Below are positions 7,280 to 20,469 of a stretch of DNA of 23,153 bases, piece after piece; within the stretch, counting starts at the first letter, position 1; each line of letters starts with the position of its first letter. The stretch spans positions 1 through 23,153 of IMG/VR virus record IMGVR_UViG_3300032323_000787. One strand, given 5' to 3'. Made by a program: the position numbers and the translations under genes. The notes under the pieces are model-generated. The model had not been told where the DNA came from and ran no database searches. It saw only the letters and a program-made list of their open reading frames with translations. The DNA comes from a virus.

Positions 7280-8548
7280 TTACATGAACCAAGAGCTAGG
7301 CTTGCTTTCTTTCTTACCTGATTTTACAGCTCCTTTATCGATCTGTCGTGCAACTTCACCAAATAATTCATTTGATTTCTTTGTTACTCCAGTCTTTTGG
7401 ATAGTAGATAAACTTGGATCCTTTTCCAATATCTTCAACAAAAGAGCAACCTTCACTTTCATAGCATGATTTTCTGGTCTCTTTAGTTCTAAGATGGTAC
7501 GATCGAAATCTGTTAAAGTTTCTCCAGAATTTGTCTTGTACTTATCTACTAAAAGAAAGTCTTGTAGTTCGCTAGCTAGTTTAGGATTGAAAGGAATACC
7601 ATCAATCTCTTTTGTTTTCAGTTTCTCTTGGATGATAGACTGAACGTTATTAATGTACTGATTTCTCACTGCAGTTTTTTGTTGCAGGTCTCTTTCAGCT
7701 TGAGCTTCTAGTTGTTGAAGCTTTTGAGCTTCTTTCTTAACTAACACCTTGTGGTGTTTAGTTGCTACTGTTTCAAGATCACCGTAGTTTTTAAGTCTCT
7801 CAACCTCAGTATCGATATCTTCAGCATCAAAACCTTGATCAGCTAATGCTTGTTTAATTACAGTGACTTGATTTGATTCCTGAGATAGGTCCATCTCAGA
7901 GAAGTTAGCAATAGTGTTGTATGCAGCAAAATATTCTTTTGGATCAACACCTTTTACATATATAGCTTCGAATGCTTGTTGATAGTCCTCACCAAATTGT
8001 CCAATGAATTTGTTAACCATATCAATAGCTCCTCTTTGTTTTTCATTCTGGAATCTCTCCAAGAATTCTTCAGGACTATTAACATCAATCTCATCTTCAT
8101 CATCTTCTGCAGTGAATACTCCAAGTTTTAGCAAGTCATTTGCTAAAGCCTTGAATTTACCAGCTACAGGATCAGCACTGTCTTCACCTTCATCTTCATC
8201 ACCTTCTTCTTCAGAAGCTTCAGGTTTTGCAGCAGGTTTTTTATCATCACCTTTTACATCCTCTTCTTCTTCCTCTTGCTCATCATCACCACCTAATAAG
8301 AAATCAGTTAAACTTTTAGTTGTATCTTCTTCTTTATTATCAGGATCGATAGGTGCTTTTGCTTTTGGTGCAGGTGGTTCAGGGTCGTTACCAACCTCTT
8401 TACCAATCTTTTGTAAATCATCGGGATTTGTTGTTTGAGTTTCTGGGGACATTAAGTCATTCAGTAACTCTGCATTTCCCATGCCCATTTCCATAGTATT
8501 CTCAATACCAAATGTGCTAAATGATGGACTTTCTAAGTTCTCAGCCAT
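7280..8548 (-). CDS. Scaffold-like head morphogenesis protein
   Basis: A 422-aa protein. Residues 1-140 are disordered and very acidic (EEEEEDVKGDD and EGDEDEGEDSAD runs, with Pro/Ala/Lys linkers). Residues 150-330 are helical with a strong coiled coil (KKEAQKLQQLEAQAERDLQQK), and the end is basic (GAVKSGKKESKPSSWFM). This composition and the slot between portal and major capsid fit an internal scaffold. No protease signature is seen, and a capsid cargo protein is the alternative. It follows a strong hairpin terminator after the portal gene. Confidence 0.6.
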   Translation of the reverse strand: MAENLESPSFSTFGIENTMEMGMGNAELLNDLMSPETQTTNPDDLQKIGKEVGNDPEPPAPKAKAPIDPDNKEEDTTKSLTDFLLGGDDEQEEEEEDVKGDDKKPAAKPEASEEEGDEDEGEDSADPVAGKFKALANDLLKLGVFTAEDDEDEIDVNSPEEFLERFQNEKQRGAIDMVNKFIGQFGEDYQQAFEAIYVKGVDPKEYFAAYNTIANFSEMDLSQESNQVTVIKQALADQGFDAEDIDTEVERLKNYGDLETVATKHHKVLVKKEAQKLQQLEAQAERDLQQKTAVRNQYINNVQSIIQEKLKTKEIDGIPFNPKLASELQDFLLVDKYKTNSGETLTDFDRTILELKRPENHAMKVKVALLLKILEKDPSLSTIQKTGVTKKSNELFGEVARQIDKGAVKSGKKESKPSSWFM

Positions 8549-14175: not shown

Positions 14176-14467
14176 GCGTGTCTTCCTTTGATTGTTTTAT
14201 TTCTTTCTCCTGTTCTGCTGTTAGCACAGGAATCCACTTATTTATAGGACAGCTACAAGAAAGACACTTTGTTTTAGCAGCCAATGTACATCCACAATGT
14301 GTGCAATGTGCATCTGGCCTAGCTGTCTTATGGAACTTAGAATGATGTGGACATTCTGAGCAGACGTTTAATCTGTCTTGGCTGGTTTTCTCAATTACTT
14401 CCTTCAGTGCTGAGGGGGGAAAGAGGTTGTTCTTCCAGCCCTCGTAGATTTGACTCAAGTTTATCAT
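14129..14467 (-). CDS. Zinc-ribbon protein (112 aa)
   Basis: A 112-aa protein with an N-terminal helix (IYEGWKNNLFPPSALKEVIE), then a Cys/His series: CSEC-PHH, CTHCGC, CLSCSCPINKW. The pattern R-x-x-x-C-x2-C ... C-x2-CGC ... C-P-x-x-KW is common among small phage zinc-ribbon proteins. It probably binds two zinc ions. No other Met is available, so the start stands despite a 77-nt overlap with the HU/IHF-like gene. The function is unknown; nucleic-acid or protein binding is plausible. Confidence 0.65.
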   Translation of the reverse strand: MINLSQIYEGWKNNLFPPSALKEVIEKTSQDRLNVCSECPHHSKFHKTARPDAHCTHCGCTLAAKTKCLSCSCPINKWIPVLTAEQEKEIKQSKEDTLEGYAREIKPESSNS

Positions 14468-14807
14468 TTATTTTTGGTTTTAAAATGTCTATAGCCTTGA
14501 GCAGGGAATCAAGCTTCAATTTAGCCGAATGCTTCTTCTGCTCTGAAACGTTCTCGTTAGCCAATGTAGCCTCTAGAACACCTCTCTGTTCTAGCATCCT
14601 TTGGAAATGTTTTTCAGCCTTCTTCTGGTTAAACAGAAACTTGCCAAACCCTGCAATCTCTATGCTATTGGCTGTGTACAAAGCGTTGTTTGCTGACTGA
14701 AACTGATGCGAAATGACAGAGTCCAGAATCTTCTCTGGCATGTTCATTTTAATCGACATCTTCCTGATGATGAAGTCTTTTAACGACAGACTCTTTGGCT
14801 TATCCAT
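14391..14807 (-). CDS. HU/IHF-like DNA-binding protein
   Basis: A 138-aa protein. Residues 8-70 resemble the HU/IHF fold: helices KDFIIRKMSIKMNMPEKILD and ISHQFQSANNALYTANS, then a strand with IEIAGFGKFLF (50-59) and KKAEKH, comparable to the GFGxF turn of bacterial HU. The usual DNA-clamping arms are not clear, and the tail (residues 70-138) is a separate coiled helix. IHF-type subunits are known in crAss-like phages. It may compact or bend phage DNA during packaging or replication. It overlaps the regulator gene by 8 nt. Confidence 0.55.
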   Translation of the reverse strand: MDKPKSLSLKDFIIRKMSIKMNMPEKILDSVISHQFQSANNALYTANSIEIAGFGKFLFNQKKAEKHFQRMLEQRGVLEATLANENVSEQKKHSAKLKLDSLLKAIDILKPKINDKLESNLRGLEEQPLSPLSTEGSN

Positions 14808-15156
14808 GAACTAAGTTTATCTCTAGTCTAATATCGTTGTTGAAATTAAGAATGATGATGGGGTTCACCTTCACCTTTGTTCCATCTTTCACTAACACAC
14901 CTAACTTCTTAAGCCTACTGATCATGTTGTTGATGGTAGGACTGCTTGTTCCATACTTCTCACAGAACTCCTCTCTGAGGTGTTTGTAAGAGATGTTACC
15001 CTTTATAGCTGTAAAAGCAATAAGCTGTGCTTCTCTCTGTGTTAGCTTTAAGTCATTCAACACAGACAGTATGAAATAATACTTCTCTGCTAGAAGGAAA
15101 TTATCCTCTGTTTGCTTCTTAAGCTTCTGGACTATTATCGTTGGTTGGTTTTCCAT
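14800..15156 (-). CDS. Winged-helix-like transcription regulator (118 aa)
   Basis: The frame is open from 15189, but a perfect promoter (-7 element at 15183-15176) overlaps the upstream part, so the start is ATG 15156 (MENQPTIIVQKLKKQ). Residues 30-95 look like a winged helix-turn-helix: LKLTQREAQLIAFTAI, then SYKHLREEFCEKYG, a recognition-type helix SSPTINNMISRLKKLGVL, and a strand wing VKDGTKVKVNP. It is the first gene of its transcript, ahead of the HU-like and packaging genes, and may control virion gene expression. No exact family name can be given. Confidence 0.6.
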   Translation of the reverse strand: MENQPTIIVQKLKKQTEDNFLLAEKYYFILSVLNDLKLTQREAQLIAFTAIKGNISYKHLREEFCEKYGTSSPTINNMISRLKKLGVLVKDGTKVKVNPIIILNFNNDIRLEINLVHG

Positions 15157-15175: not shown

Positions 15176-15206
15176 CAAAGATAGGACAATAAAATTTATT
15201 ATCAAA
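15176..15206 (-). promoter_or_regulatory. Bacteroidota-type promoter for the packaging operon
   Basis: On the minus strand TTTG (15206-15203), a 19-nt spacer, then TATCTTTG (15183-15176). This matches the TTTG / TAnnTTTG consensus of the Bacteroidota primary sigma factor. The expected transcript begins near 15170, about 14 nt before ATG 15156. Confidence 0.65.
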
Positions 15207-15220
15207 AACAAATCTTTTAA

Positions 15221-15242
15221 CTAATGCTATATTATGCACTAA
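15221..15242 (-). promoter_or_regulatory. Single dyad site related to the 18404-18600 array
   Basis: The minus strand carries GTGCATAATATAGCA with flanking TTA and TTAG. It matches copy 2 of the array at 14 of 16 positions across GTGCATTATATAGCAC. It sits about 15 bp upstream of the -33 box and about 60 bp upstream of the predicted transcript start, where an activator or operator could act. Confidence 0.5.
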
Positions 15243-17735: not shown

Positions 17736-17780
17736 CACAACAAGTCTATAGATGTAGTGCTAACAAAGGTCTATAGACTT
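17721..17780 (+). other. Pseudoknot-topology repeat at the 143-aa gene end
   Basis: Arms are arranged a1-b1-a2-b2: TAGCAC (17733-17738), AAGTCTATAGA (17742-17752), GTGCTA (17757-17762), TCTATAGACTT (17770-17780). The b arms pair perfectly over 11 bp. TAGCAC can instead pair with GTGCTA at 17721-17726. The tail ATTTAAG is weakly U-rich. It may be a terminator, a 3'-protecting fold or a regulated structure. Confidence 0.5.
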
Positions 17781-18101
17781 ATTTAAGACATTAGAATAGC
17801 TAGCTGATCAACACTAGACAGTACAAATGAACAAACTACCTATTACAAGGTGAAAGATAGAGTATCTACAACGTGAGAGTAGCTATCTCCATTACATTCT
17901 GACTTGGAGTGTACAGTGGTCCAAGAGGAAAAGTGAAAGTTTGTACAACACAGTTCTAAGATGTGTTTGGTTTAGGTTGATAACATGAGATCCATATGCA
18001 CTGATATGTAGGTGATCGATATTGCAAGTTCATTACTTGTTGATTGAGAGTTTCGTGTTCCTACTTAGAAGGCAGTTAGTTATTCTATTATTTAGACATT
18101 T
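17781..18101 (+). ncRNA. Non-coding stretch with further hairpins, possible ncRNA
   Basis: This 321-nt gap has only very short frames (8 codons or fewer). Visible folds are AGATAG-5 nt-CTAC ... GTAG-CTATCT at 17855-17888, 10 bp with a bulge, and CTTGG/CCAAG around a 13-nt loop near 17914-17936. No tRNA or known RNA family is recognised. An untranslated regulatory RNA, or a long leader of the 86-aa gene, is possible. Confidence 0.3.
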
Positions 18102-18362: not shown

Positions 18363-18403
18363 TGTGCATGATGTTTTTGGAAAAATTCATGCAAATCCGA
18401 ATT

Positions 18404-18600
18404 AAAGTGCATTATATGACACTTTTTGTTAAATTTTATAGCACTACTCGGAGAATTTACGAACTAATGTGCATTATATAGCACTTTTACTGCAGTATAT
18501 AACACTTTTACTAAACTTTGTTACGCAATTCGGATAGTTGCAAGTTAAAGTGCTTTATATGGCACAAATCTGTGCATTTTTGTGACTTATAAGACACATT
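18404..18600 (+). repeat. Array of 22-bp imperfect dyads (five copies plus one half)
   Basis: The consensus is AAAGTGC, ATTATATA, GCACTTT (22 bp). Copies start at 18404, 18466, 18487, 18547 and 18579, each 22 bp, with a right-half copy in 18426-18447. Start spacings are 22, 40, 21, 60 and 32 bp, close to whole helical turns. A perfect inverted pair ATCCGAATT (18395-18403) / AATTCGGAT (18527-18535) flanks the first three copies. The array lies in a 518-nt gene-free region. It may be an operator cluster, iterons of an origin, or promoters. Confidence 0.7.
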
Positions 18601-18683: not shown

Positions 18684-18770
18684 TAAGACATTGGGTGAGA
18701 GGTGTTACATTCTTTCTACTTCACAGAAAGAAAGCTTTATGGTGATGCTAAACCATTTTTGTAATGCACC

Positions 18771-18879
18771 ACAACTCACTTCCCAAGGGTGAGCAGTTGT
18801 AATAGTAGTGAAGTCCATAGGTTGCAAACTATGCCTGTAAAGATGCCACATAATAGGTGTGGAAGGACTATTACAATTG
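18771..18879 (+). ncRNA. Branched, switch-like fold before the AT-hook membrane gene
   Basis: CAGTTGTAATAG (18794-18805) can close a branched fold with CTATTACAATTG (18868-18879), 12 bp with one wobble. Inside lie the hairpins CATAG/CTATG (8-nt loop) and CCACA/TGTGG (7-nt loop). GTTGT (18796-18800) can instead pair with upstream ACAAC (18771-18775) around TCAC/GTGA. The two forms exclude each other. It ends 46 nt before ATG 18926. No known riboswitch class is recognised. Confidence 0.4.
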
Positions 18880-18925
18880 AGTGCAGAGGGGAATTAACCT
18901 ATTTATTCATTTAATCACTTACAAC

Positions 18926-19683: not shown

Positions 19684-20469
19684 ATGGACAAAAAATTAAC
19701 AGAATTAAAAAACTTATTGATGCACTTATTAAAAGGAACTAAGTGGATAACTGATTCATCTAAAATCAAATTAAGCTATCTAGCAGGTATCAATAGACCA
19801 ATTTATCCAGCTCAGGTAACAAAGCTTGCAGAATCACTACTTAAAATGGGTAATATTAGACCTGTTGTAGTATGTGAAATTGATTTCATCAATGGTAAGA
19901 AAGGACATTATATCATCGATGGTCAGCACTTATTCAATGCATTATTAAGACTAGGTTGGGAAATTCCTTACGTAACAATTCAGGTTAAGGATAAACAAGA
20001 TCTGGTTGAAAAGATTGCATTGCTAAACTCATCATCTAAATCATGGACTATGCAAGACTATGTTCTTGCTTGGGCATCATTGGTTCCTGATTATGTGAAA
20101 TTAAATCACTATTTTCAGGTGTATGATATTGAGATGAGCGTTATTGCAGGCATTTTATCTAATGGAAATGTTAGTACAGCAGGACCAATCACTAAAAAGA
20201 TCAAAGCTGGAGAATTTGCTATTCAAGATGAAGAACTCAATGTATCTATACTAAACGGTATTACAGATGTATTGAAATTTATTCCTCGCATGAATAGATT
20301 CGAGAATCGCTATGTTTGTTCAGAGTATGTAAACTTCAGAAGAACTACAGGTTGTGACTATGATCACAAGAAGTTCATGAAAAGTTTAGAGAACAACAAA
20401 CAGAAGTTTATTCTTGCTACTCAGGAGCAACAGAAACTTGCTGACATGTTTAGAAAGTTAGTTAAGTAA
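19684..20469 (+). CDS. ParB/sulfiredoxin-fold protein
   Basis: A 261-aa protein. Residues 25-120 resemble the ParB N-terminal domain: KLSYLAGINRPIYPAQVTKL, then ESLLKMGNIRPVVVCEI, HYIIDGQHLFNALLRLG (the DGQH-x-x-x-A phosphate-binding motif) and IPYVTIQVKD. The next segment NSSSKSWTMQDYVLAWASL is also typical of phage ParB-like proteins. No clear helix-turn-helix follows, unlike chromosomal ParB. Such phage proteins may bind nucleotide, act as nucleases or regulate transcription; CTP binding cannot be judged here. It precedes the 64-aa gene by 2 nt. Confidence 0.75.
   Translation: MDKKLTELKNLLMHLLKGTKWITDSSKIKLSYLAGINRPIYPAQVTKLAESLLKMGNIRPVVVCEIDFINGKKGHYIIDGQHLFNALLRLGWEIPYVTIQVKDKQDLVEKIALLNSSSKSWTMQDYVLAWASLVPDYVKLNHYFQVYDIEMSVIAGILSNGNVSTAGPITKKIKAGEFAIQDEELNVSILNGITDVLKFIPRMNRFENRYVCSEYVNFRRTTGCDYDHKKFMKSLENNKQKFILATQEQQKLADMFRKLVK

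What the first reader, a model, noticed from the sequence alone, without database searches (positions are those of the whole stretch)
18404..18600. Helically phased array of 22-bp dyads in a gene-free region
Five 22-bp copies and one half copy of AAAGTGC-ATTATATA-GCACTTT occupy about 200 bp. Start spacings of 22, 40, 21, 60 and 32 bp keep most copies on one DNA face. A distant 9-bp inverted pair (ATCCGAATT/AATTCGGAT) brackets the first part. Arrays like this are typical of origins with iterons, multi-site operators or centromere-like loci. The conserved TATA core also allows repeated promoters. The same motif appears in front of the minus-strand operon, so one protein may coordinate both blocks.
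Basis: partly seen in the sequence, partly recalled or inferred. Interest (0 to 1): 0.75.

Follow-up and report, generated by a model that had tools for sequence, protein, structure and literature searches.

The report
Helically phased binding-site array in phages
A short stretch of non-coding DNA in a freshwater crAss-like phage carries evenly phased, mirror-symmetric sites that probably hold a DNA-binding protein; the same sites recur, usually once per genome, in related and in apparently unrelated phages, so they look like a shared control point whose exact job is still unknown.

Summary
The array is real. A matrix built only from other phages scores four window sites (18404, 18466, 18547, 18579) at 23-24 bits; the next best site in 23 kb scores 9.8, and 300 simulated windows never exceeded 16.8. 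A weak copy (18487) and a half copy (18426) also exist. The window is a piece of a crAss-like phage. Ten of 12 near-complete relatives carry a clear cluster of these dyads, usually one per genome, non-coding. Spacings cluster at 31-33, 51, 61-62, 72-74 and 81-83 bp (62 of 65 within a quarter turn of an integer); one natural indel between sites is exactly 10 bp. The same pair occurs in apparently unrelated phages, some just upstream of the large terminase gene. A once-per-genome 29-bp palindrome (window 18365-18393) accompanies the dyads in 26 of 49 cases. No host-type promoter is associated with the pairs. The look-alike before the minus-strand operon is a different motif (4.5 bits), upstream of a Bacteroidota-type late promoter. 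Best reading: a cooperatively bound operator array (about 45%); main rival: an origin, partition or packaging site. The binding protein is unidentified.

The parts
18404..18425 (.). dyad 1 (AAAGTGCATTATATGACACTTT)
   Evidence: 23.8 bits with a matrix made without the window
18426..18447 (.). half copy (only ...TTTTATAGCACT kept)
   Evidence: direct repeat D7
18466..18487 (.). dyad 2 (AATGTGCATTATATAGCACTTT)
   Evidence: 23.2 bits
18487..18508 (.). weak dyad (TTACTGCAGTATATAACACTTT), overlaps the previous one by a base
   Evidence: 9.6 bits; below 8 with the independent matrix
18547..18568 (.). dyad 3 (AAAGTGCTTTATATGGCACAAA), first of the 32-bp pair
   Evidence: 23.1 bits
18579..18600 (.). dyad 4 (TTTGTGACTTATAAGACACATT), second of the 32-bp pair
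   Evidence: 23.9 bits; 32-bp pairing conserved in relatives
18365..18393 (-). second element 'P2', 29-bp palindrome TGCATGAATTTTTCCAAAAACATCATGCA, one copy per genome where present
18395..18403 (.). ATCCGAATT flank abutting dyad 1; TCCGAATT also abuts dyads in L187
18527..18535 (.). AATTCGGAT, inverted partner, 11 bp before dyad 3
15224..15239 (-). look-alike 'motif B' GTGCATAATATAGCAT upstream of the late operon; NOT an array site (4.5 bits)
15176..15183 (-). -7 box TATCTTTG of a Bacteroidota-type late promoter (TTTG box 19 bp upstream)

Best explanation
The array is a multi-operator control site. Each 22-bp dyad binds one dimer of a sequence-specific regulator, and neighbouring dimers, placed an integral number of helical turns apart (most often three, 31-33 bp), bind cooperatively on one face of the DNA. 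The complex sits at the head of a transcription unit (an early unit in this phage, the late unit in a sister clade and in some apparently unrelated phages) and sets when it is read. Shown: the sites, their conservation, their phasing, their non-coding position and their near-uniqueness per genome. Inferred: that a dimer binds, that binding is cooperative, and that the effect is on transcription. The binding protein is unknown; because apparently unrelated phages share the site, it may be host-encoded or a widely shared phage protein.
For: Independent matrix scan. Clusters in near-complete relatives, none in reversed-sequence controls. Spacings 31-33 (46 of 65), 51, 61-62, 72-74, 81-83, 62 of 65 within a quarter turn of an integer. 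A natural deletion between two otherwise near-identical arrays (G005 vs L027/G020) is exactly 10 bp. Arrays end 1-60 bp before a start codon in several genomes (G003, G005, G012, L041, L043). In several phages of other lineages the pair lies directly upstream of TerL or late genes (L192, L216, L301, L306); in clade 2 it lies before the first gene of the late operon. Second clusters in G007 and G031 stand before another gene start. An HTH gene (MUG113/T5orf172 + HTH_3) lies near a pair or P2 in 14 of 18 loci found through its protein, in at least 4 lineages. The 3-turn dyad pair resembles cooperative repressor operators (general knowledge).
Against: No host-type promoter is enriched within 150 bp of pairs (3 of 45 vs 9.7% of random intergenic points). 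The gene downstream differs from genome to genome. Usually one cluster per genome, and a second, strongly conserved once-per-genome palindrome nearby, both of which suit a DNA-maintenance site at least as well. In the window the next sizeable ORF starts 325 bp after the array. The HTH gene was not found in most array-bearing relatives, so no universal regulator was found.
Confidence: 0.45

Rival explanations
1. A DNA-maintenance site: replication origin, partition site or packaging site, in which the phased dyads are wrapped by a binding protein and the 29-bp palindrome P2 is the acting core.
For: One cluster and at most one P2 per genome in most; P2 and dyads within 900 bp in 26 of 49 P2 sites against a background of 12 hits in 335 kb, once as one compact element (L292); near the replication module (DNA polymerase, DnaB) and, in 10 of 15, within 5% of the genome length from the GC-skew minimum; immediately upstream of the polymerase gene in G012; a DnaA-box-like TTATCCACA next to the pair in clade 2; shared by apparently unrelated phages.
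Against: The skew minimum follows the coding-strand switch, and stays there when the array is 10-13 kb away (G012, G019); G018/G022 lie near the skew maximum; some genomes have two clusters; dyads are palindromes at 3-turn spacing, unlike the directly repeated iterons of most plasmid origins; no initiator gene tied to the array; P2 not found in several array-bearing genomes.
Confidence: 0.35
2. Array of phage promoters: the TATA-cored dyads are recognised directly by a phage RNA polymerase (crAss-like phages carry a virion RNA polymerase for early and middle genes).
For: Early-side location; no host-type promoter in the window array; a review states that the virion polymerase reads early and middle genes and probably the host polymerase reads late genes (PMC10136315).
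Against: Sites occur about once per genome, not before each early operon; they are near-symmetric and appear in either core orientation; they occur in phages with no detectable TerL or portal relation to crAss-like phages.
Confidence: 0.08
3. The dyads are boxes of a known host regulon: SOS (Bacteroidetes LexA), NrdR or a CRP type.
For: GTGT-N8-ACAC has the geometry of an E. coli-type LexA box; 3-turn pairing resembles NrdR boxes (from memory).
Against: [quoted passage not shown] NrdR boxes (from memory) have the half sites the other way round (ACAC-N8-GTGT).
Confidence: 0.07

Closest known systems
Cooperative multi-operator arrays (lambda CI operators; NrdR-box pairs)
   Same: Palindromic sites of about 20 bp, several copies, centres an integral number of turns apart, in front of genes
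   Different: Different half-site sequence; no host-type promoter at the site; protein unknown; usually a single cluster per genome with an extra palindrome P2
Iteron-type replication origins (lambda ori with O-protein iterons, plasmid iterons)
   Same: Several phased copies in a gene-poor stretch, about once per genome, near replication genes
   Different: Spacing mostly three turns and variable (5-8 turns), no initiator gene attached, GC-skew minimum does not follow the array
Plasmid resolution sites (cer, psi: Xer core plus accessory regulator sites)
   Same: About 30-bp palindromic core next to phased accessory sites, once per element, shared among unrelated elements
   Different: P2 does not resemble dif/cer cores as known to me; exact P2 not found in GTDB genomes except chance coding hits
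parS/ParB centromeres
   Same: Clustered sites; a ParB-like gene 1.1 kb downstream in the window
   Different: ParB-like gene found near only some arrays (window, G012, L090); site unlike parS as known to me

Membership tests
Multi-operator array | Several copies of one dyad, more than chance | tested here: met
Multi-operator array | Helical phasing of neighbouring sites | tested here: met
   62 of 65 spacings within a quarter turn; exact 10-bp natural indel
Multi-operator array | Overlaps or adjoins a promoter | tested here: inconclusive
   no host-type promoter enriched; phage-polymerase promoters unknown
Multi-operator array | Bound by an identified regulator | not testable with these tools
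   no universal candidate gene found
Iteron replication origin | Once per genome in non-coding DNA | tested here: met
   in most genomes; second clusters in G007 and G031
Iteron replication origin | Coincides with GC-skew minimum independent of gene strand | tested here: not met
   skew minimum stays at the strand switch when the array is displaced (G012, G019)
Iteron replication origin | Replication starts there | not testable with these tools
   needs an infection time course
ParB/parS centromere | Cognate parB gene adjacent | tested here: inconclusive
   ParB-like gene near the array in window, G012, L090 only
Bacteroidota sigma-type promoter | TTG/TTTG-N17-21-TAnnTTTG | tested here: not met
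   none in the window array; present at the late operon, 15176
Bacteroidetes LexA (SOS) boxes | GGA-N5-TCC or CTAA-N5-TTAG | tested here: not met
   dyad half sites are GTG(T/C)...(A/G)CAC with an 8-bp centre
NrdR boxes | ACAC-N8-GTGT half-site orientation (from memory) | tested here: not met
   half sites are GTGT...ACAC
Headful packaging (pac) site | Bound or cut by terminase | not testable with these tools
   only location upstream of terminase in several lineages

The most novel reading that the evidence does not exclude
The phased dyads plus the 29-bp palindrome P2 form a portable cis-element, usually one per genome, shared by crAss-like and apparently unrelated phages, that engages the same host protein for replication, resolution or packaging of the phage genome.
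Probability: 0.28. Interest if true: 0.75.

Novelty: new member of a known kind. Interest (0 to 1): 0.5.

Why it matters
How crAss-like phages time their genes and where they start replication or packaging is largely unknown; a review calls the exact replication mode unknown (PMC10136315). A short, precisely defined, recurring element gives a direct bait for finding the protein, and its presence in apparently unrelated phages hints at a common partner.

Tried and rejected
Long consensus search: too strict. DNA similarity of the region or the pair in GenBank phages and plasmids: none, or chance. P2 in GenBank phages: only partial chance matches. P2 in GTDB genomes: two hits inside one kinase-like gene of Oxalobacteraceae, chance. 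Tyrosine recombinase as owner of P2: absent from 13 of 16 genomes. Host-type promoters in the array: none. Motif B as an array site: 4.5 bits. Bacteroidetes LexA boxes: different motif. MUG113/T5orf172-HTH as universal binder: not found in most array genomes. Closest GenBank relative by TerL (Lbo-JY46): no dyads in the 90 kb looked at. Rfam on the window: nothing.

Full report
What the window is. It is a 23-kb fragment of a crAss-like phage: terminase, portal and major head protein match PHROG families, TerL has hundreds of relatives in IMG/VR at up to 89% identity, and its GenBank matches are crAss-like phages of Bacteroides, Flavobacterium and Cellulophaga, with a best match of 40% to a Leptolyngbya phage. 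The minus-strand late operon has a Bacteroidota-type promoter, TTTG-N19-TATCTTTG at 15176, with a separate conserved motif (GCATAATATAGCA) about 60 bp upstream of the expected start in most of 63 relatives. The host is therefore probably a Bacteroidota (inference).

Is the array real? Yes. The strongest test is independent: a matrix trained on 67 dyads from other sequences, none from the window, gives 23-24 bits to four window sites, 9.8 to the next best site in 23 kb, and never more than 16.8 in 300 Markov simulations. The training set was first gathered with a seed matrix that included window sites, so it is independent in sequence but not in how it was found.

Conservation. Relatives carry the same dyads in non-coding DNA, with 31-33 bp pairs and 61-62 bp neighbours. 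In near-complete relatives of this phage family (G001, G003, G005, G007, G010, G012, G020, G021, G029, G031) one cluster stands out; G013 has a weak pair and G011 none. Reversed-sequence controls give no pair in any genome. G007 and G031 have a second cluster in front of another gene, in G031 with a P2-like palindrome. The cluster is not in a fixed gene neighbourhood: it moves within the early side, and in one clade lies before the first late gene.

Phasing. Of 65 distinct neighbour spacings, 46 are 31-33 bp and most of the rest are 51, 61-62, 72-74, 81-83; 62 fall within a quarter turn of an integer at 10.5 bp. Two nearly identical arrays differ by a deletion of exactly 10 bp between sites. 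In the window itself only four of six sites share a face. The spacings come partly from related phages, so they are not fully independent.

Spread beyond relatives. A strict pair pattern finds 45 stretches in IMG/VR; its reversed control finds none. Some hits may be chance (two lie inside an ORF). Several lie in phages with no detectable TerL or portal similarity to this one, such as G028, or with other terminase families: between a putative TerS and TerL (L192), and upstream of TerL (L216, L301, L306). How these phages would be classified was not tested formally.

The second element. A 29-bp palindrome, P2, at 18365-18393 recurs in 48 IMG/VR stretches, once per genome even with four mismatches, with 19 of 29 positions invariant in 18 sequences (the search pattern itself fixed most of these, so that number overstates conservation). 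Dyads lie within 900 bp in 26 of 49 cases, against 12 background hits in 335 kb elsewhere; several of these 49 are close relatives. In L292 P2 and a dyad pair form one compact element.

Function. Against host promoters: none in the window array, 3 of 45 pairs against 9.7% of random intergenic points. For an origin: near-uniqueness, replication genes nearby, and closeness to the skew minimum in 10 of 15 genomes; but that minimum follows the strand switch when the array lies elsewhere. For operators: dyad symmetry, three-turn pairing, short distance to start codons, second clusters at gene starts, and an HTH gene (MUG113/T5orf172 with HTH_3) near pairs or P2 in 14 of 18 loci found by protein. 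That gene has its own repeats (AGTAAAG) around a host-type promoter and was not found in most array-bearing genomes, so it is not the general binder. I favour operators (0.45) over a maintenance site (0.35). The binding protein is not identified; a host protein would explain sharing among unrelated phages, but host genomes could not be scanned.

Literature. No paper found in the searched library describes this element; published Bacteroidetes SOS motifs differ (PMC8565304); a review leaves the replication mode of crAss-like phages open and notes early transcription by the virion polymerase (PMC10136315).

Noticed in passing
window 18690-18925 (+): Candidate structured RNA just downstream of the array: core TAATGCACCA..CTTCCCAAGGG..GTTGTAATA and a distal block TATTACAAC-TGAGTGCAGAGGG, found in at least 12 crAss-like loci, 7 of 17 predicted pairs with changes on both sides; TTCCC may also pair with GGGAA (by eye). 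No Rfam match. Single-sequence folding is only modestly stable (z -1.7).
   Followed up: partly
window 17740-18101 (+): Second non-coding stretch with unusually stable predicted folding (z -4.2, 0 of 100 shuffles); a 35-nt piece is 97% conserved in L076/L078.
   Followed up: partly
window 15224-15239 (-): Motif GCATAATATAGCA, conserved upstream of the late-operon promoter in most relatives, at about the distance of a class I activator site.
   Followed up: partly
L227:4303-4773, L216:1784-2278, L291-L308: Small phage gene family with MUG113/T5orf172 and HTH_3 domains, near dyad pairs or P2 in 14 of 18 loci, with AGTAAAG repeats at its own promoter.
   Followed up: partly
L056, L058, L071, L075, L077, L079, L080 near 7742-7749; G007 53958: DnaA-box-like TTATCCACA next to the dyad pair in one clade.
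   Followed up: no
window 19684-20469 (+): ParB-like gene 1.1 kb downstream of the array (PHROG match 1.5e-14), with relatives near arrays in G012 and L090 only.
   Followed up: partly
window 14391-14807 (-) and 14800-15156 (-): HU-like protein and a small winged-helix-like protein at the start of the late operon; both conserved in nearly all relatives.
   Followed up: no
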